NCBI RefSeq assembly: GCF_018687715.1
Contig: NC_056755.1
Location: 23,157,501-23,221,500, forward strand
Direction: 5' to 3'
Source: Carya illinoinensis
Lineage: Eukaryota > Streptophyta > Magnoliopsida > Fagales > Juglandaceae
DNA: 64,000 bases
Shown: piece after piece, positions 8,805-58,300 of the stretch
How positions within the stretch are numbered: the first letter of the stretch is position 1
Layout: each line of letters starts with the position of its first letter
Made by a program: the position numbers and the translations under genes
The notes under the pieces: generated by a model
What the model was told of the DNA's origin: nothing
The model's database searches: none
Seen by the model: only the letters and a program-made list of their open reading frames with translations

Positions 8805-11800
8805 TCATAGAGGAGGCTCATTACGAGCAATACAGATTAAGTCATCCAAAATGACTCTTTTGATTACAGCAGGGCCATCTTCCAGCCAAACTACTTCACT
8901 AGCCACATTAACAGCTAGTTTTGCAGCAATGTGTGCACCTACATTAGCACTCCTGTGAACAAAATCTAAGACCCACTCTGGATTAGCTGCCATGACATGT
9001 TGCAGGTCCTCTATCACCTGTCCTAACCAAGAGCTGTCCTCTTGATTTGAATTCACCGCATCTACAACGTTTTTGGCATCCCCTTCAAAGCATACTTATG
9101 ACAGACCAAGCTCAAGACATAACACCATTGCTCTTTGAAGGGCGTAGCACTCAGCTTGGAAAGCTGATTGGATGTTCTCTCTAGGTGCAACCAGACATCC
9201 CAACAATTCTCCTTCAGAATCCCTTACTACTACTCCCAAACCCATACTTCCTTTGTCTTGATCAAAAGCTGCATCGAAGTTAACTTTAGAAAAAGGCCAA
9301 TCCGGGGGTTTCCAAGTCTGCCTCACACCATCTGCTTGTGTTCTTTTTGTTCTATCCTTCCCTCCTGACTGTGCTTCCTTATACATTGCTTGTTCAAACA
9401 AAGCCTTAGCAACAATCAAACTAGGAGAATGAAAGGTTTCCTGAAAAACCAGTCCATTCCTTCTTGTCCATAGCTGGTAAAAAATTACTGCTGCCAGTTC
9501 CAATTCTTCTTGGTTCAGCCTCACTACCATTTCTTCCCACAACAACTGGAAGTCATTGAAGCACCTTTTCCACTTACTGAAAGAGTGAAGCCTCCCCACA
9601 CATCGGCTGCTGCAGGACACTCCCAGATCACATGCACTTCAGTTTCAGGTTCCCTCAGACAGATTGGACACAAACTGCTTTCCACTATGTTCTTTCTAAA
9701 AAGTTTATCTCTAGTTGGCAGGATCCTACTAATACATTTCCATATCAGCATCTTTACCTTACTTGGGACCTTGAGGCCCCACATTTTCCTCCACATACCA
9801 CTGATTGACCCACCTGAGGACGTATCCCCTGAGTTTCTTCTCTGCATTGTAGTTTCTAGGAAGTAGGCACTTTTGACTGAGAATGTTCCTTTTACTGAAG
9901 CTGCCCAAATCCTCTTGTCACTTGCTCCTTTACTGCTCAGAGGAATAGATAGGATCATTTCTGCTTCATCTTCCCTGAAAACTGTCTCCACCACTTCTTT
10001 TCTCCATGATTTAGTAGCCACATCTATCAGAGTTTCCACCTTTGCTTCACTGCCAAGAGTATTCATAGGAGACTGAACTTGAAAGGATACAAGTCGAGGT
10101 AACCACTTATCTTTCCAAATGCTGATGCTCTTACCATTTCCCACCCTCCATACCATGCCCTTCTTAACCAACTTCAAGCTCGACCATAGACTTCTCCACA
10201 TAAAAGATGGAGACCCTTTTAGCTTTGCATCCAACAGGTCACACTCTTGAAAATACTTTTGCTTGAAAACCCGAGCAACCAACAGATCTGGTTCCTTTAT
10301 AAACCTCCACAGCTGCTTTGCTAGTAGTGCTTTGTTGAAGGAACTAAGGTCTCTATAGCCTAATCCCCCTTGGTTTTTCACTGAGCTCAGAAAGCACCAG
10401 CTCTTCCAATGTATGCCCCTCCCTTCTCTTTTATGGCTCCACCAAAATCTTGCCAACATAGCTTCAATCTCCTTTAGTAGCATAACTGGTAGCTTAAAAA
10501 CACTCATAGCATATGCAGGAATTGCCTGTAATACACTTTTAATCAATACTTCCTTGCCTGCGGATGAAAGAAATTTTGTTTTCCAGCTATTTATTTTCTT
10601 CCATATCTTCTCTTTCAAGCTCCTAAAAGAGTTATACTTAGACCTTCCAACCACTGTAGGGAGTCCTAAATATCTGTTATAATCATTGCATCTTGAACCA
10701 TTGATCTGTTGTAGGATGAACTCTCTTGTTTCACCTCTTGTGTTGGAGCTAAAGAATACACTGTTCTTTTCTTTGTTTAGTGTTTGACCTGATGCTTGCT
10801 CATATAGAGCCAAGAGTCCCCGAATTCTGTACCACTCCACTATCTTTGCTCTGCAGAAAATAACACAGTCATCTGCAAAGAGAAGGTGATTGATTCTTAT
10901 TCCTCCCCTCATTACATCAACTCCTTTAATCATGCCTCTCGATTCAGCTAGCTGTAGTAGATTACTGAGACCTTCAACACATAATAAGAATAAGTAGGGT
11001 GACAAGGGATCACCTTGCCTTAGTCCTCTTGTGGGAATGATTGTCTCTCCTAGCTGTCCATTGATGATAACTGAATATGAGACTGATCTGACACATGTCA
11101 TCAACAAATTCAACCATCTCTGCCCAAAACCCAATTTTAGTAACACAGCCTCTAAGAAATCCCACTCAACCCTGTCATAGGCTTTCGACATATCTAACTT
11201 GATTGTCATGACACCCTCTTTACCCTTTTTCCTTTGTTGCATTGAATGAAGGACCTCAAAAGCCACCATTATGTTATCAGTTATCATCCTCTTGGGTATA
11301 AAGGCACTTTGATTCCTTGATATCACCTTGTCGAGCATGCCTTTCATTCTATTTGCCATAACCTTCGAGATCAGCTTGTAAAACACATTACACAGAGATA
11401 TAGGTCTAAATTCATGTACTGAGGTGGGGGAATTAACCTTAGGGATTAAAGCAAGATGAGTGTGGTTTAACTCCCTTAGTAAAGTACCTAAGTTTAGGAA
11501 ATTCAGCACTGCTTGAGATACCTCCTTCCCAACTAGTCCCCAGTGTTCTTGAAAAAACCCTGCACTAAACCCATCAGGCCCTGGTGACTTGAGAGGAGAC
11601 ATTTGTTTGAGTGCCAGCTTCACTTCCTTATCTGTAAATACCCTTTCCAGCCTTAGACTCATCTCGGCTGTTAGTCTTGATTCCAGACCCTACAGGCTTT
11701 GCTCTATACTTGCTGGACTAGGATTTGTCGACTTGTATATCGCTTTGAAGTGGTTCTTAAAACTTGCAGCTACCTCTTTCTTCTCTCTCACTTATATTCC

Positions 11801-12950
11801 TTCCATATCAATGATTCTGGTGATATTATTCTTCTGCCTTCTCTGATTTACGCAGGCATGATAATATTTTGTATTTCTGTCCCCACCAATTAGCCAGTGT
11901 CTCTTTGCCCTTTGCCTCCACCCTATGGCTTCTTGTTCCAATAGAAAGTTCAGGTCTAACTGCAGGCTTCTTTGTCTCCTTATGGTACTTGATTCTTCTC
12001 GGCTTTGTAGCTCACCTAGCAGCTGTGTCTTTTCTCTTATAGCTCTATTTCTGTCTCTAGCCATGCCTCTACTCCACTTTTGAAAACCCCTTCTAGTTCT
12101 TTCAAGCTTATATAAAAACCTTCTCCAAACCAGACACCCCTCTATGACTCCCTTGCCATGCTTCAGAAACTACCTCTCTACAGCCCCTCTCATTTATCCT
12201 ATTGGCTTCATACTTGAAAGAAGAGTGAAATCTGTAATCTGAGCACCTCTCAAAACTACAGGAAAGTAGTATTGGGCTATGATCAGAACAGATAACTGGA
12301 AGAGTTTCCACTGAAACCTCTGTATAAACTCCTTTCCACCTCAGGTTTGCTAAAGCTCTGTCTAGTCTTTCCTTTGTGAAAGACTCATCTTCATGTCGGT
12401 TGCACCATGTGAATTTGTTTGTTTTCCATCCCAGATCAATCAAATTCCCTTCTTCTATCAGCTCCCTGAACATTTTCATGAGGTTTTCATTCCTGCCTCT
12501 TCCCCCCTCTTTCTCATCATTTAACAAGATCTCATTAAAATCCCCTATCACCCCCCAACCCCCTTCACTAGGCTTGAAAGATGACAATAAATCCCAGGTT
12601 TGTTTTCTCAAATTTGCATTCGGGTGCCCATAAAAACAAGTTAGTAACCACTTAAAGTTACACTGAGTGTCATTTACCAAAACATTAAAATGATGTCTTG
12701 AGAAATTAACTAGCTCTACCTGATCCTTTTGTTTCCACAGTAGGATAAGACCTCCACTTCTACCAACCGCCTCACTAACACAACAGCCCTCAAACTTTAA
12801 GGTCTTTGCAATCCCATCTGCTCTACCATATGGGAGTTTGGTTTCCATATGGAAAACCACATCAGGCATCTTCTCCTTTACTATCATGCGAAGGGTCTGA
12901 ACTGTTCGGGGGTTCCCAAGCCCCCGACAGTTCCAACTTAGGATCCTCAT
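8805..12950 (-). pseudogene. LINE ORF2 (endonuclease, reverse transcriptase, RNase H), broken
   Basis: ORF2 nicks the target and copies the LINE RNA. The APE-type endonuclease occupies 12950-12110 (LSWNCRGLG at the start, METKL, GDFNEIL, SDHSPILL). Reverse transcriptase lies within 11662-10600, with GPDGF, PISLCNVFYKL, DMSKAYDRVEW, GLRQGDPLSPYLF and the catalytic FADD. A zf-RVT-like segment with CPICLREPETEVHVIWECP lies near 9680-9750. An RNase H domain (KVNFDAAFD) runs from about 9360 to 8807. Breaks seen are a frameshift near 12130, in-frame stops at 11792-11794 and near 11690, a frameshift near 9600 and a stop near 9095. The catalytic residues remain, but the frame does not, so it is recently dead and not functional. 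Confidence 0.9.
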
Positions 12951-14510
12951 ATCCTCTGGTGGGGCTGCCTAGCAGCCTCCACCTTATCCAAAAGATCATT
13001 GTTTAGCTCCAAAGAACCCAAAACACCAAGCCTTTTTTGTTTTTTCTGAGATCCAAGGTTAGTAGTGCTTGCCTCTAAACCCCGTTTTGCCCCTTTTGAC
13101 CTGGTGGAGATAGAGGAGGATATTGAGCAATTATGCACCCTGGCTTGACGTTTCCAACTACGGTGTTCTTGCTGCTGAGCCTTGCTTTGTTCTTGATTCA
13201 GTTCTGTTTCAACCGCTACTTCTTCCAAGTTAGTAACTGAAAGGGAGTTAGGCCCTTCCTGGTCTAAAGGCCGGCCCAGTACCCCACGGAGCCCAGCCTT
13301 CTCACCTGGCCCTATGTTAACTTCCATTTCACTCCCCTTTTCCCGCCTAGAACTATCCCTCCCTGCCTTGTACAATTCCTTCTCCTTTTCCCGCCTGAAA
13401 CTATCTAGCCCAGTCGTACACTGCTCCTTTTCTTTCAAGCAGCTTAGAAGGTCAGCTTCCATCACGTCCCCACCTTCCTCTAGGTTTTTCCGCCTCTGTC
13501 TCTGACGGCTAGTGTCTGTCATGTCACCCATCATAGTTTCCATAAGTTTATGTATGTGAGACAAGCCGGAAGGGGTCTCCCGTTCTCCATCCAACCCCTC
13601 CGCCAACCTCCCTTCTCGGGCACTATCTTCTGGTATTACTACCCTCCCCTCTTCACTGTAACTCTGTTTCTCCCTTGCTCCCGTGTCGCTTGGGTAATGC
13701 ACCTGGCCAGACCATCGTCTAGGGACCATCTCAGCCTGAAGCCATGGGCCGAACTGTGGCTTTCCATCAGGGTCCTCCTCTCTTTGTTTTGCTTTGCTCG
13801 CTTGGCACCCCTGATCATCATGAAGGAGCCAGCCACACTGAAAATAGATTTTTGGTAAAGATTCGTATCGAAATAGAACCCAATGTTTAGAATTCTGGAC
13901 ACTTATGAATCTGCCCCTGGCAATTTGTTTCCTGAGATTTATCTCCACCTTAACCCATAACCATCTCCCCCATCCAGTACCATCCTCTTGCGTATCTACT
14001 TCTACCACCTTGCCCACCGTCTTCCCTATTTTGTTACCCCAATCCTCAGACATGCAGCTCAAGGGTAAGTTATGTATTTTCATCCAGAATACTTCACTTT
14101 CGAAAACTATCTTTCCCGGTTTCATTCTTCCATCATATAGCATGAGAAGAAACATAGCGTTATAAAAAAAACCAAGGTTTTCCTTCTAATACTCTTTGTA
14201 GATCCGCATGTGTTCCAAAAGTAATAACATAAGTATTTTTTTCAACTTCTTGGAAAGAAGCCTTCTTACTGATCCTCCATATCCTTGCCATGGTATTGCT
14301 AATCAGGTCTTTCCCTATCACCCTATCCAAGCATACTCTCCCAATCAGACTTAATTCACCTTTCCATCGTATATCTTCGTTCCCGCTGCCCTCCATCTTT
14401 ACCAACTCTTCCTCCTCTTTTGTTAGTTTCAAATTTTTCCATAGCTCCTCCAGATCTTTAGCACTGTGATTCTCTCTTGCGTACATAACTAAACTGTATA
14501 ATGGCTTCAC
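12947..14510 (-). pseudogene. LINE ORF1 (DUF4283 and zinc-knuckle protein), frameshifted
   Basis: ORF1 of plant L1 elements encodes an RNA-binding protein. The first part (14510-14160) carries the DUF4283-type domain, visible as WKGELSLIGRV and the AMARIW-like helix TMARIWRI. The second part (14155-12947, 402 residues if read from its first Met) continues that domain (FWMKIHNLPL), followed by a zinc-knuckle region and a charged low-complexity tail. The frame changes at an eight-base A/T homopolymer around 14162-14170, so slippage is the likely cause. The knuckle reads IYFQCGWLLHDDQGC; its first cysteine is replaced by tyrosine. The stop codon overlaps the start of ORF2 by four bases (ATGA, 12947-12950). 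Confidence 0.85.
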
Positions 14511-18447: not shown

Positions 18448-18453
18448 TTTATT
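18448..18453 (-). terminator. Poly(A) signal of the CLE-like gene
   Basis: AATAAA on the minus strand lies about 19 bases beyond the stop codon of the CLE-like gene. It is the only canonical hexamer close to the stop. Confidence 0.6.
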
Positions 18454-18471
18454 CTATATCAATATTAAACT

Positions 18472-18804
18472 TCAGTTCTTTGTCGTTGCTGTTGGTGTCG
18501 GTGGTGGTTCCATAGGGTTGGGTCCACCTGGAACTAAACGGTCGATCCTCACCGGTGTTGGTGGTGGCTCCATAGGATTGGGTCCACCGGGAACTAAACG
18601 GTCGATCCTCACCGGTGTTGGTGGTGGCTCCATAGGATTGGGTCCACCGGGAACTAAACGGTCGATCCTCACCGGTGTTGGTGGTGGCTCCATAGGATTG
18701 GGTCCACCTGGAACTAAACGGTCGGCCCTTATTCGAGCTGCATCGGTAGCGCTCATGAGGAGCACTGAGAATATCACGGCCACAAAGAATACCTTCGCAA
18801 TCAT
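18472..18804 (-). CDS. Secreted preproprotein with four tandem CLE-like peptide units
   Basis: The product is 110 residues. Residues 1-23 (MIAKVFFVAVIFSVLLMSAT...) form a clear signal peptide. The rest is four 20-residue units, each with RLVPGGPNPMEP at residues 29-40, 49-60, 69-80 and 89-100, separated by PPTPVRID. The sequence RLVPxGPNP is the core of plant CLE peptides, which are released from secreted precursors and bind LRR receptor kinases to control meristems and vasculature. The usual C-terminal LHN/HH is replaced by MEP. The proline and glycine positions that are hydroxylated in CLE peptides are present. I chose the Met at 18804 because the TATA box at 18901-18912 would place transcription start downstream of the earlier Met at 18900. 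The frame is single-exon and intact. It could be another proline-rich secreted peptide; the CLE link is inferred from the motif. Confidence 0.8.
   Translation of the reverse strand: MIAKVFFVAVIFSVLLMSATDAARIRADRLVPGGPNPMEPPPTPVRIDRLVPGGPNPMEPPPTPVRIDRLVPGGPNPMEPPPTPVRIDRLVPGGPNPMEPPPTPTATTKN
18488..18727 (-). repeat. Four 60-bp tandem repeats in the CLE-like gene
   Basis: The unit is exactly 60 bp. The two central copies (18541-18600 and 18601-18660) are identical base for base, and the third differs at one site. The outermost copy, at the 3' end of the gene, has several changes. Identity at synonymous sites points to recent duplication or conversion. Confidence 0.95.
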
Positions 18805-18900
18805 TGTCTCTGATCCGCCGCTCTTACTTCCAATTTCTTGAAGAATAACAAAACAATGGTATAGATTGTTGAGATTGAGATTTACTGGGCTCATCATCAT

Positions 18901-18912
18901 TTATATATATAA
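18901..18912 (-). promoter_or_regulatory. TATA box of the CLE-like gene
   Basis: TTATATATATAA lies about 97 bases upstream of the chosen ATG, leaving room for a 5' leader of roughly 60-70 bases. It is the only strong TATA element directly upstream. Confidence 0.65.
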
Positions 18913-23000: not shown

Positions 23001-24285
23001 TATAGTCACTAAGCTGCAACTTGGGGAACAATGGGCTAAGCATTTCTTTATGCAACAAGGACTGCTATTGAGGAAAGGTAAGATAGTGATTGTTCCTTCA
23101 TCATCCATTCAGTCCAAGATTCTTGAGTACATCCACAACAACTCATAAGCTAGCCATGTGGGTTATCACAAGACCTTGCAGTGAGCTAGAAGGGATTTCT
23201 AGTGGGAATGCATGAGGAAGGATGTTAGAAGATTAGTTAAGGAGTGTGAAGTTTGCAGGTCAGTAAGAATGAGAATGTGTGGTACCCTAGTCTTTTGCAA
23301 CCCTTGTTTATACCTGAATCTCCATTGTTAGACATTTCCATGGACTTCATTGAAGGCTTACCTCTTTCAAATGGGTTTCTATGGTTTTTTCTGTCGTGGA
23401 CAGATTAATCAAGTTTGCTCATTTCTTCTCTCTGTCACATCCTTATACAGCAGCTAAGATGGCTCAAGTATTCTTCACTGGGGTGTTCAAGTTGCATGGC
23501 TTACCTCAGTCAATTGTTTCAAATAGAGATATAGTTTTCACTAGTGCCTTTTACAGACAACTATTTCAGTTGCAGGTGTCTCACTGGATTTCAGTTCATC
23601 TTACCATCCACAGTCAGATGGTCAGACAGAAGCCTTAAACAAGTGTTTGGAAAGGTACTTAAGATGCTATTGCAGTCACAAGCCTAAGGAGTGGAGTTCG
23701 TGGTTGCTAATAGTTGAGTGGTGTTATAACACCACTATCAACTCCACCATTAAAATAACTCCTTCTGAAGCCTTATATGGGTATGCTCCACCTAAACTGA
23801 TGACCTATGTGCTAGGTACTTCTTCCAATGATGTTGTGGATAGGCAACTCAAGTCAAGGGAAGAATTGTTGAACTTGTTAAAGGATAACTTGTTGAGAGC
23901 ACAGCAAGGAATGGAATTTTTTACTGATAGAAAAAGAAGTGAAAGATCATTTTTGGTGGGTGATTGGGTTTTCTTGAGACTTCAACCCTATAGACAGAAA
24001 ATGGTAGCTATGAGGCATAATATGAAATTAGCCCCACGTTTCTATCACCCTTTCCAAATTGTGCAGAAGTTGGGGTCTGTTGCATATAAGTTGAATCTGC
24101 TTGAGTTTTCAAAAATCCATCCAGTTTTCCACGTTTCATGTCTTAAGAAGAAGATAGGCCAAAATATTATAGCTCTGCCTACTTTACCACTTACTAATTC
24201 TAGTGGTCAGTTATTGCCTGAGCCTTAACAGATTATAGATAGAAGGATGCAGAAGAAGAGGAATCATGTTATTTCAAAAGTACTT
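20006..24285 (+). pseudogene. Chromovirus-like Ty3/gypsy gag-pol relic
   Basis: Gag starts with the ATG at 20006 and has a DFPHFSGNDP-type core near 20270 and a zinc knuckle (CFHCEEKWNSNHVC) near 20885. Protease follows with ILVDSGSTHNFL near 21128. Reverse transcriptase spans about 21560-22470 ([33 protein letters not shown]). RNase H lies at about 22540-22870 and integrase at about 23100-23800, followed by a C-terminal part (LAPRFYHPFQIV, KIHPVFHVSCLK) that ends abruptly near 24285. A chromodomain would be expected next and is missing. There are many stops and frame changes. In the reverse transcriptase active site the text reads NFNDILVY, so the first catalytic aspartate is asparagine. A T run at 22112-22127 adjoins it. 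The element is dead and truncated at its 3' end. Confidence 0.88.
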
Positions 24286-35022: not shown

Positions 35023-35162
35023 CTTAAATAGTCTGTGTAGTCCAATTTTCCAATCCAGGACACAGGCTTATTAAAGAAGCATGACATAGTTTCTTAAATA
35101 GTCTGTGTAGTCCAATTTTCCAATCCAGGACACAGGCTTATTAAAGAAGCATGACATAGTTT
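35023..35162. repeat. Perfect 70-bp tandem duplication
   Basis: Positions 35023-35092 and 35093-35162 are identical, starting CTTAAATAGTCTGTGTAGTC and ending ATGACATAGTTT. Confidence 0.95.
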
Positions 35163-35869: not shown

Positions 35870-42290
<6,421 letters not shown>

Positions 42291-55312: not shown

Positions 55313-58300
55313 TATAACATAGCCCGCCAAAAATCAGGAACCTCATGGAAATTTTGGAAGTTTCATGAATTAATCAATCACATAGACTTTAATCTATTAG
55401 CATAGTCATTTTTACTACTCACTATATAGCCAAAACATAATTTTATTTATTTGAGGTACTTAAGAGTGTGAGAATGAGAAACGGTTTGAGCCATTGGTCT
55501 AAGATGAATATTTATGATTTTATAGCGTGAATTGTTCAAGGCACTTAAGAGTTGAATTTTGTGAAATGAAGTATGCTCCTAGTTTGATATGAATATTTAG
55601 GACTTTATGACGTAAAGTTATTTTCATAATTTTTCAGAGTGAATAGTGACCCCAGTGTAAACGTCATGCTACACTCAGTTTTTTGTTTTCAAAAACACAA
55701 TATGAAATATCTAAATTGGGTTAGAGAAGTTTTATCGAGACACTTGACAAGAAGATCAAGTTTTGTGATCATACCACCTAAGCAAAATCTTATTCCATCC
55801 AACCATCCAATTTGTATCAAACCAAAGAAAAACTCTAAACACTTAGAATCCAATTGAAACCCTTGAATCTTGTTGAAAATTGAAACCCCAAATAGTTTTC
55901 CCAAACCCCAAAAGTTTGCCTCTAAACCTTAATTGAAACCGCTTGTAGCTTAGTATTTAATCACTTGATTAAATCACTTCCATATACTATTAACACTCAA
56001 ATTTATGTCATTACAACCTTATTTATTCTTTTAAACCATGATAATTTTATTATGCCAAGACAAATTGGATTTGGGGTTTGATAAAAACTCAAACCCCAAC
56101 AAAATCCTATTGAAACACAAAATCATTCGATTAAGATCCAGGAAATTGCACCACCAAGGCAAGGCTTGTGGAGAAAGTTTTCCTCTACCAAGAGTGTCCT
56201 TTCATCGCACAAGCCAGCCCCAAATAGTGTTTAATGGGAAGGCTAAAAGTCATCTCACCACTTCCCTCTCACTCAGTAGCAGCAAGGTTAAAAACCATAG
56301 ATTGTGGCACTTGGTTTTGTATCTAGTTTTGGCTAACACCACATCACCCAAAGTGCCTTTCACACATCTCCTATCACCCCTTCAAATGTATAAGTTTTAT
56401 CCCTGTCTATTTCATTAGCCTTTGATCATTTTGAAGCCTTTTTTTGAAGAGAAAACTAGAAGAACTCTTAGACAGTCGTTGTAAGTGTTTTTTCACAAAG
56501 TACCATTCACATAGATTGTTCATCTTTGAGTTTAGTTTCTATTTTTATCTTTTGTGTAAATTCTCATGGTCATTTGATGGGTGAAAATTTTATTTAATCA
56601 TGAAGAGATCATTTTGGGCAATAGTCTGGATGGTGTATGATTCTTTGATTTTTTTTTCACTAAGCTATTGCAAGATCTTGGTTTGATATTTTTATGGTTT
56701 ATATTTAACATGCTAATATACAAGTTTTATGAAGCTTAGTTGCATGTTATAAGTTTTTTATATGAGTTTTGCATAGACCTAAAAAGTTGAAAACCAAGAG
56801 TATGAAAATAGACTTTGTTTTGAATAAGCTTAACTCTTTTATCGTGAAAGTATGCTCTAATGGCTTTGATACTCACCTATGATGTTCCTAGGAATTTGAT
56901 CTATATGTTAGAATATTATTTTGAGGATTTATGATATTTATTTGAAAGATATAATTTTTATGTATGCAAAGATTCTGATAGGTCTTGTATTTGAGGTTTC
57001 CAGATGGATCTATGTTTTAATGCAAATTTTGCCATGTGATCTTAGGTTTAATGTTTAGATATATTCTAGGACTTGATTATTAAGCATATGATGTTGTTCA
57101 TTTATGATTTATTTCATGAAAGGTTTCAAATCTAATGATTTGATCAAAACTAAATCACATAGCTTTTGGTTTTAGTGAAAGGGTGAAAATCGATTATGTT
57201 AAATTTGATTTTGTGAATTTTTGTGATTTTGGCTTGATGATTCAAGACATGATATTTTTAAAAATATGTTATAAATGTATTGAGAGTATGTTATTGAACT
57301 TTTGGAGTTCCTGGAGTTGTTTTAAAAAGAGATAAAATCTTGAACATCAAGGATTGTTCTTAAGGATAAATATTGGAAATTTCATATTGAGAAATTTGTA
57401 ATTTTTTTGATTTAAAATTTTTTTATTTGTTCTATTATGTTATTTGAGCATAGGATGTGATTTTTGTATATTGCATATTTTGGTTTTAGCATGAGAAAGG
57501 AGGTTTGAAAGAATTGCAACAAAAATAAAGAGTTTTAGCCTATACATATTTCGGCCTATGCACGTTTAACCTAGTTGGGTTGTGTTTTAATTTTTTTTAA
57601 TTAGATATTTGGATTTAAGACAAAAATTACATGAGGAATGTAAACCCTCATGTAAATTTTTGTGAGTTTTGGAGTTAAGAATGTGAAATCTTTAAATTAT
57701 GGGTAAAATGATCATTATCCTACATGTAAAGAGGTAAAATGGTTATTTTGCTCTAAGTCAGTATTTTTATGTTTTTAAGTTGTTAGTGAGGATTTTTTAA
57801 CATTTAGAAATATCTCCTTACAGTTCTCATTTATTCACACATTTTATTTATTATGCTAACTCACTGTAAGTTAGCTTCTAACTTTCTGTCAAAATATTGT
57901 GTATGTTTATTGGTAAGAGAACAGTTGTTCATATTCTTATGTTCTTATATATGTCATGATATGCCAACAAAATGTATATCTGTTACACACTTTACTATGT
58001 CATGAAATGTATATCTGCTATACATTATATTATGTAAAAAAATGTATATTTGTCACATATCATATTATGTTACAAAATGTTTTTCCGTTATACATTATAT
58101 TATGTCACGAAATATTTATCTATTATATGTTATATGTCATATCAAGAAATGTTATCTATTACATGTTACTTCATGTCACAATATATATATATATATATAT
58201 ATATGTTTTATGTTGTGCCATATCATTCATCTTATGTACATGTCACGTTACATTACATCACGTCATTGGGTTGTTGGAATGATGGTAAATATGCATGATT

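What the first reader, a model, noticed from the sequence alone, without database searches (positions are those of the whole stretch)
18448..18912. Gene for a secreted precursor with four tandem CLE-like peptides
Seen: a 110-residue frame with a signal peptide and four copies of RLVPGGPNPMEP in 20-residue units, a TATA box upstream and an AATAAA downstream. Known: RLVPxGPNP is the CLE core, and most plant CLE precursors carry one CLE motif at the C terminus; multi-motif precursors are a minority. Inferred: one transcript could yield four identical ligands, and the MEPPPTP tail in place of LHN/HH might change receptor choice or processing.
Basis: partly seen in the sequence, partly recalled or inferred. 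Interest (0 to 1): 0.8.

Follow-up and report, generated by a model that had tools for sequence, protein, structure and literature searches.

The report
Pecan-type gene with four CLE-like peptides
A small secreted-type protein gene in a hickory or pecan-like tree carries four copies of a plant hormone-like peptide (CLE type) whose usual ending is replaced by a proline-rich tail, and similar proline-tailed repeats turn up in other flowering plants.

Summary
The minus strand encodes a 110-residue frame (18804-18472): a signal-peptide-like start and four identical DRLVPGGPNPMEPPPTP repeats in 20-residue units. It is a real gene: this genome holds four copies (2, 4, 4 and 3 repeats), walnut a 5-repeat relative, and all differences among the ten contig-4 repeats are silent. 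The CLE link is strong: coded RLVPxGPNP occurs 17 times in 674 Mb, 11 in this family, 5 in ordinary CLE precursors, 1 spurious; reversed control 0. But 50 of 50 poplar CLE motifs end in H or N, this one in P. The proline tail is not private: x-x-[S/P]-P tails recur in multi-repeat precursors of other plants, some also carrying normal LHH/LHN repeats, though the search leaned towards them. Multi-CLE precursors, and a rice one with a proline-rich non-His tail, are published. I read it as a CLE-derived multi-peptide precursor: a new variant of a known kind. Expression, processing and receptor are untested.

The parts
18472..18804 (-). coding sequence of the 110-aa precursor (stop codon 18474-18472)
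   Evidence: relative in walnut and three further copies in this genome
18739..18804 (-). signal-peptide-like N terminus MIAKVFFVAVIFSVLLMSATDA (cleavage site inferred)
   Evidence: hydropathy peak 3.1 over 11 residues, Lys at position 4, A-D-A before the repeats (sequence); no signal-peptide predictor was available
18664..18723 (-). repeat 1: DRLVPGGPNPMEPPPTPVRI
18604..18663 (-). repeat 2: DRLVPGGPNPMEPPPTPVRI
18544..18603 (-). repeat 3: DRLVPGGPNPMEPPPTPVRI
18493..18543 (-). repeat 4: DRLVPGGPNPMEPPPTP, followed by the C terminus TATTKN
18905..18911 (-). TATA-box-like sequence
   Evidence: pattern match; function not tested
18448..18453 (-). AATAAA polyadenylation-like signal
   Evidence: pattern match; function not tested
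18805..18900 (-). in-frame upstream extension (would give 142 aa), read here as 5' untranslated
   Evidence: no in-frame Met in the 2-repeat copy, short open lead without Met in the contig-15 copy, start at MFAKVFF in walnut; but the NCBI Carya model P0002 uses it

Best explanation
A functional gene for a secreted, CLE-derived multi-peptide precursor. Shown: the frame, its repeats, its copies in this genome, silent-only variation in the contig-4 repeats, and relatives that join it to ordinary CLE precursors. Inferred: after signal-peptide removal the prolines are hydroxylated, proteases cut in the VRID linkers, and up to four identical peptides (RLVPGGPNPMEP, or a longer form with the PPTP tail) are released and bind the groove of a CLE-type leucine-rich-repeat receptor kinase through the kept R-L-V-P-x-G-P-N-P core. 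Because the usual C-terminal His-Asn/His is replaced by Glu-Pro plus prolines, I expect altered co-receptor contact: another receptor, weaker signalling, or antagonism of ordinary CLE peptides.
For: Core scores top of 56,368 windows. Coded RLVPxGPNP in the whole genome: 17 exact matches, of which 10 in the contig-4 trio, 1 in the contig-15 copy, 5 in single-motif precursors ending LHN/LHH and 1 spurious 13-codon frame (in fact SLVPSGPNPK, which the pattern admits); reversed control 0. A profile of the Juglandaceae proteins alone (A1) reaches Actinidia P0007, named CLE-related by its source, at E 2.5e-5. Mixed precursors: a loose script count gives 8 of 63; clearest are Pyrus P0018, Sesbania P0020 and Actinidia P0007. 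A profile of the N-terminal LFHELGF module trained on three non-His precursors scores the His-type P0024 and P0047 and the mixed P0007 above all 2000 shuffles each; P0029 is matched by 15 of 2000. Ten contig-4 repeats: 5 variable nucleotide sites in the 17 codons, all silent (P about 0.001-0.003 for five of five). The two 4-repeat copies encode the same protein, with 3 silent and 0 amino-acid changes, while aligned flanks differ by 5.3% overall. Walnut keeps all five 17-residue repeats identical to those here.
Against: No transcript, peptide or activity data. The C-terminal H/N feature is not met. In the widest profile search only 23 of 62 hits have E <= 1e-3, and the single-motif proteins named CLE9/CLE10 come in at E 0.06 or worse, so direct statistical homology to single-motif CLE precursors is weak. 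Silent-only variation could partly reflect gene conversion, and downstream flanks differ by only 1.6%, which weakens the selection test; against the 2-repeat copy the window gene has 2 amino-acid and 1 silent change in 213 aligned coding sites (I2F, A27V, outside the repeats). The contig-15 copy has changed core residues (R1 to H, P4 to L in one repeat each). The walnut spacer shows no detectable LFHELGF module (203 of 2000 shuffles as good), nor do those of the non-His Cinchona P0010 and Euphorbia P0012. Pfam label PF27922.1, found on CLE relatives, is not listed for the walnut and Carya proteins.
Confidence: 0.6

Rival explanations
1. A secreted hydroxyproline-rich structural or arabinogalactan-type wall protein; the CLE resemblance is a by-product of proline- and glycine-rich repeats.
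For: NCBI named the Carya relative 'classical arabinogalactan protein 9-like'; 41% of residues are P, A, S or T; PPPTP could be a glycosylation site (recalled).
Against: No hydrophobic C terminus for a GPI anchor (last 20 residues mean hydropathy -1.06). In the whole genome 16 of 17 coded RLVPxGPNP strings fall in ordinary CLE precursors or this family. Mixed precursors with true LHH/LHN repeats.
Confidence: 0.15
2. A CLE precursor that has lost function: repeats expanded as a minisatellite after the C-terminal His-Asn was lost, and the gene is drifting.
For: Repeat number varies (2, 4, 4, 3 here; 5 in walnut and 3 in the NCBI Carya model); contig-15 repeats have changed core residues; two amino-acid changes between contig-4 copies outside the repeats.
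Against: All variable sites in the ten contig-4 repeats are silent, walnut repeats are identical, and the x-x-[S/P]-P tail recurs in other plants.
Confidence: 0.15
3. The repeats are not cut into peptides; the whole protein or one peptide is the active form, as proposed for some multi-CLE proteins.
For: [quoted passage not shown] switchgrass multi-motif TDIF-like genes gave no amplification in Arabidopsis (PMC8496505, passages).
Against: Repeats and linkers are regular, with an Arg-containing VRID linker between successive repeats; nothing measured either way.
Confidence: 0.1

Closest known systems
Plant CLE (CLV3/ESR-related) peptide precursors, e.g. the poplar CLE set (PMC4776436; passages and section 5 read)
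   Same: Signal-peptide-like start, short basic Cys-free precursor (pI 9.9; 0 Cys), core R-L-V-P-x-G-P-N-P; Asp before Arg also occurs in poplar group III (DRLSPGGPDP)
   Different: Poplar proteins have one motif each; 50 of 50 motifs end in H or N; here M-E-P followed by PPTP
Multi-CLE-domain precursors: rice CLE75/CLE76, wheat CLE30/31 (PMC2254619), MtCLE14 and GmCLE37a/b (PMC4526924), eight Medicago and Lotus genes (PMC5570945), passages read; 59 proteins in 27 species (Goad 2017, as cited in PMC8496505; Goad not read)
   Same: Several CLE motifs, mostly regularly spaced, in one precursor; four identical repeats also in MtCLE14
   Different: Published spacings seen are mostly about 24-37 residues, here 20; most motifs printed in those passages keep HN/HH
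Rice CLE76 (two copies each of RKVPTGPDPITSDPPP and REVPSGPDPITSDPPP; PMC2254619 Table 2)
   Same: Four repeats, no His at the end of the motif, proline-rich tail
   Different: Spacing 25-29; core RKVP/REVP-x-GPDP; not shown here to be an orthologue
Proline-tailed multi-repeat relatives found here: Craigia P0003, Citrus P0004, Cinchona P0010, P0013, Daucus P0014, Euphorbia P0012, Manihot P0023, Brassica P0021
   Same: Tandem units with the RLVP-x-GP core (one or more per precursor) and x-x-[S/P]-P tails
   Different: Unit length, linkers and N-terminal spacers differ; some (Citrus, Daucus) share an LFHELGF module that this gene lacks

Membership tests
CLE peptide family | N-terminal signal peptide on a small, Cys-poor, basic precursor | tested here: met
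   hydropathy and pI 9.93, 0 Cys in 110 aa; no signal-peptide predictor available
CLE peptide family | core R-x-[V/S]-P-x-G-P-[N/D]-P | tested here: met
   first ten positions score +29.7 bits in the poplar matrix; top four of 56,368 windows
CLE peptide family | motif ends in His or Asn at position 12 | tested here: not met
   ends in P; 50 of 50 poplar motifs end in H or N
CLE peptide family | sequence homology to accepted CLE precursors | tested here: met
   through intermediates only: profile A1 reaches P0007, named CLE-related, at E 2.5e-5; profile A2 reaches P0016, given a CLE-related name by UniRef, at 2.8e-10 but single-motif CLE9/CLE10 proteins only at E 0.06 or worse; mixed precursors. 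Homology of this gene outside the motif is not shown
CLE peptide family | Pfam label seen on CLE relatives (PF27922.1) | tested here: inconclusive
   precomputed on P0003, P0004, P0008 and proteins named CLE9/CLE10, not on P0001, P0002 or P0007; the local Pfam scans did not report this model even for proteins that bear the label
CLE peptide family | proteolytic release, proline hydroxylation and arabinosylation, LRR receptor kinase binding | not testable with these tools
   needs peptidomics and binding assays
Multi-CLE precursors | two or more regularly spaced CLE-like motifs in one exon | tested here: met
   four motifs every 60 bp in one open frame
Classical arabinogalactan proteins | GPI-anchor type hydrophobic C terminus and PAST-rich backbone (recalled definition) | tested here: not met
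   last 20 residues hydrophilic (-1.06), PAST 41%

The most novel reading that the evidence does not exclude
Angiosperms hold an undescribed, widely spread subfamily of CLE-derived multi-peptide precursors in which the receptor-anchoring His-Asn end has been exchanged for a conserved proline tail (x-x-[S/P]-P-x-x-P, often with E second). The released peptides bind CLE receptors but recruit a different or no co-receptor, acting as natural antagonists or as ligands of a separate receptor set. The hickory/pecan locus is a clean case with identical repeats and recent tandem copies.
Probability: 0.3. Interest if true: 0.75.

Novelty: new variant of a known kind. Interest (0 to 1): 0.5.

Why it matters
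CLE peptides are central plant hormones, and their C-terminal residues meet receptor or co-receptor (for TDIF/CLE41 the C-terminal Ser11 contacts SERK2; review PMC11756074, section 31 read). A natural series of precursors that keeps the core, swaps the end for a proline tail and sometimes mixes both ends in one protein would be a ready test of what the end is for, and of how multi-peptide precursors are cut. The two Juglandaceae proteins are filed by NCBI as arabinogalactan-like and rickA-like, so such genes are easily missed in CLE surveys.

Tried and rejected
Rfam and tRNA scans of the window found nothing. Pfam and NCBIfam scans of this protein and relatives gave only sub-threshold hits of unrelated families. 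The only match among solved structures (2ou5, E 0.0033) I judge a proline-rich chance match. The idea that the walnut spacer keeps the LFHELGF module of other relatives was tested and dropped: 12 of 2000 shuffles as good when the profile included CLE motif residues, 203 of 2000 when they were cut away. The seven module proteins were picked by eye, so the shuffle counts do not allow for that choice; one of them, P0047, was itself a weak hit (E 1.4); one training piece (P0019) still held KRLVPS, while the test pieces P0024, P0047, P0029 and P0007 held no motif. Of the nine control spacers, eight gave a score; P0030 was matched or beaten by only 24 of 2000 shuffles, the other seven by 270 to 1143 of 2000; P0003 gave no score. 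The P0003 row included motif residues and is not used. I recall, from memory only, that Arabidopsis CLE5/CLE6 carry a similar LLHELGFD stretch; a paper search for LHELGFD found nothing, so this stays a lead. One search dropped P0001, P0002 (Juglandaceae) and the near-duplicates P0006, P0011, P0017 before the tail count; its His-type label needs H at 11 and H/N at 12, so TDIF-like ends would be called non-His, and its 8 'mixed' precursors include five weak ones (P0009, P0016, P0029, P0036, P0040) whose non-His unit is a slightly altered H-type or doubtful. Genome scan for GPNPxE[S/P]P: 21 matches with 1+1 in the reversed control; 12 lie in the four gene copies and the other 9 in unrelated frames, at least seven of them alike as in a dispersed repeat, so that shorter pattern is not specific. 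No structure prediction was run, since I expected a disordered short precursor to be uninformative. Paper searches: 9 of 10 used. GPNPMEP and five tail strings of relatives were found in no paper of the held library; the sixth string, GPDPITSDPPP, only in PMC2254619. Supplements were not searchable and Goad 2017 was not read, so absence from print is not established.

Full report
WHAT IS THERE. The window's minus strand holds an open frame of 110 codons, ATG at 18804, stop 18474-18472. Its product starts with a hydrophobic stretch (MIAKVFFVAVIFSVLLMSATDA) and goes on with four repeats of DRLVPGGPNPMEPPPTP, the first three followed by VRI, the last by TATTKN. The 60-bp array scores 427 in Tandem Repeats Finder with 97% matches. 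A TATA-like box lies at 18911-18905 and an AATAAA at 18453-18448. An in-frame ATG 96 bases upstream (18900) is used by the NCBI model of the Carya illinoinensis relative (P0002). I prefer 18804: 18900 sits directly behind the TATA box, the 2-repeat copy on contig 4 has no in-frame methionine there, the contig-15 open frame starts only six codons upstream and without one, and walnut starts at the matching place.

WHERE IT IS. The held genome has 674 Mb in 17 contigs and the window lies on contig 4 at 23.157-23.222 Mb. The closest named protein is from Carya illinoinensis and differs from the 142-residue frame only by having three repeats instead of four; its contig (44,961,468 bases) is nearly as long as contig 4 here (44,960,000). 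A hickory/pecan origin follows from that, but no tool names the species. Whether three versus four repeats is an allele, another cultivar, another copy or an annotation effect cannot be told. The window also holds parts of an FtsH-type gene and retroelement pieces, so it is an ordinary plant nuclear region.

COPIES AND SELECTION. The protein matches four places in the genome: the window copy, a copy 46 kb away with the same protein, a copy a further 91 kb away with two repeats, and a copy on contig 15 with three diverged repeats. The three contig-4 copies lie on the same strand and share kilobases of flanking DNA, so they are recent segmental copies. In the ten contig-4 repeats, five nucleotide sites of the 17 codons vary and all five changes are silent (chance about 0.001-0.003). 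The window and its 4-repeat twin differ at three coding sites, all silent, and at 0 of 105 sites just upstream of the ATG, while the remaining aligned flanks differ at 5.3% of sites, unevenly (10.4% upstream, 1.6% downstream). Against this: the window and the 2-repeat copy differ at three of 213 aligned coding sites, two of them amino-acid changes outside the repeats (I2F, A27V), with flanks at 5.8%; gene conversion could also keep repeats alike; and the contig-15 copy shows amino-acid changes in the motif, including R1 to H and P4 to L. The five walnut repeats have the same 17 residues as those here.

IS IT CLE. A matrix built from 40 distinct poplar CLE 13-mers (50 motifs, PMC4776436) ranks the four repeats first among 56,368 windows of the six-frame translation; the first ten positions give +29.7 bits and the last three -9.5. 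A genome-wide scan for codons for RLVPxGPNP is free of any bias towards this tail: 17 matches, reversed control 0, expectation from the window's base composition about 0.04. Ten are the contig-4 repeats, one is on contig 15, five are single-motif precursors with hydrophobic N-terminal stretches and a C-terminal LHN or LHH, and one is a 13-codon frame reading SLVPSGPNPK. So in this genome the string occurs in CLE genes and in this family and hardly elsewhere; CLE genes with other cores (RLSPGGPDP and the like) are not counted by this pattern.

RELATIVES. A single-sequence search found only walnut and Carya (2 proteins among 5 candidates). A 3-sequence profile reached 9 proteins at E <= 10 and an 8-sequence profile 62 at E <= 5, of which 23 at E <= 1e-3 and 7 of those in the query alignment; in both, about 8,000 candidates were scored and more left out. 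I read 54 of the 63 sequences and scanned all 63 by script (with a stricter pattern). Of 63 precursors, 34 have one detected unit and 29 several. Of the 34, 32 end in H-H/N; of the 29, 17 have no such end (12 without Juglandaceae and near-duplicates), 8 are mixed by a loose rule and 4 are all His-type. This split is partly built in by the query. Outside Juglandaceae and near-duplicates, 52 non-His units from 22 precursors show S or P at position 13 in 43, P at position 14 in 41, P at 17 in 31 and E at 12 in 23; they keep G7 in 52, P5 in 51 and P8 in 51. At least one unit with [S/P]-P at 13-14 occurs in 15 of the 22 (read off). Craigia is Malvaceae and Cinchona Rubiaceae; the other family placements are general knowledge. 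Pyrus P0018 and Sesbania P0020 carry LHH repeats next to EESPEEL or QHSPDPP repeats; Actinidia P0007, named CLE-related, carries LHN next to MQPG-type ends. An N-terminal LFHELGF module is shared by non-His precursors (Citrus, Daucus, P0019), the mixed P0007 and the His-type P0024 and P0047 above all 2000 shuffles, while P0029 is not clearly recognised (15 of 2000), and the spacers of walnut, Cinchona and Euphorbia do not carry it detectably. Single-motif proteins named CLE9/CLE10 are reached only at E 0.06 or worse. Taken together, common origin with CLE precursors is the simplest reading.

HOW IT MAY WORK. Inferred, not shown: secretion, proline hydroxylation, cleavage near the VRID linkers and release of several identical peptides with the CLE core. 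The review PMC11756074 (section 31 read) says that the C-terminal Ser11 of CLE41/44 hydrogen-bonds to SERK2, and that IDA's C-terminal Arg, His and Asn contact conserved receptor residues. A peptide ending M-E-P, or continuing into PPTP, should therefore differ in receptor or co-receptor contact. That suggests another receptor, a weak agonist or an antagonist. Recurrence of the tail pattern in several plant families suggests that the tail matters either in the mature peptide or in its processing.

WHAT IS KNOWN. Multi-CLE precursors were reported in 2008 for rice, wheat and Medicago (PMC2254619, passages read), then in soybean, Medicago, Lotus and wheat (PMC4526924, PMC5570945, PMC6747155; passages), and 59 proteins in 27 species are credited to Goad 2017 in PMC8496505 (passages; Goad itself not read). 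The Medicago gene of the 2008 set was later said to translate only one domain. Rice CLE76 has four repeats with ITSDPPP after GPDP, so a proline-rich, non-His end in a multi-CLE protein is itself not new. PMC7552357 (passages and section 10 read) describes other unusual ends, with Ser at site 12, but not this one in the text I read. New here, as far as I could search, are the Juglandaceae gene family, the exact 20-residue unit, and the recurring x-x-[S/P]-P-x-x-P tail in several plant families, which I did not find described in the searches.

VERDICT. A real gene, CLE-derived, best called a proline-tailed multi-CLE-like precursor: a new variant of a known kind. It fails one feature shared by all 50 poplar motifs (the H/N end), so I do not file it as a canonical CLE. 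Likelihoods by judgement: real secreted-protein gene 0.9, common origin with CLE precursors 0.85, cut into several peptides 0.6, signalling through CLE-type receptors 0.45.

Noticed in passing
G000 contig 4, 23.039-23.176 Mb (L005, L006, L007): Three same-strand copies of the gene with 2, 4 and 4 repeats in shared flanking DNA, a recent local amplification; a diverged copy sits on contig 15 (L008).
   Followed up: yes
window 35873-41104, minus strand: Pieces of an FtsH-type ATPase/protease gene (AAA and FtsH_ext at 39836-41104, Peptidase_M41 at 35873-36223), with a perfect 70-bp tandem duplication nearby at 35023-35162.
   Followed up: no
window 9527-14155, minus strand; 28-1632 and 23647-24228, plus strand: A LINE-type element with reverse transcriptase, endonuclease and zinc-knuckle frames; retroelement pieces with RNase H and integrase domains at 28-1632 and an SH3_Tf2-1 domain at 23647-24228 (the element names are recalled).
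   Followed up: partly
loci L026, L027, L038, L040, L041, L043, L044: Similar frames scattered in this genome that read GPNP[R/Q/K]E[S/P]P, mimicking the tail pattern without the RLV core; look like a dispersed repeat.
   Followed up: partly
window 57967-58190: An array of a 35-bp unit, 6.4 copies at 72% matches, not examined.
   Followed up: no
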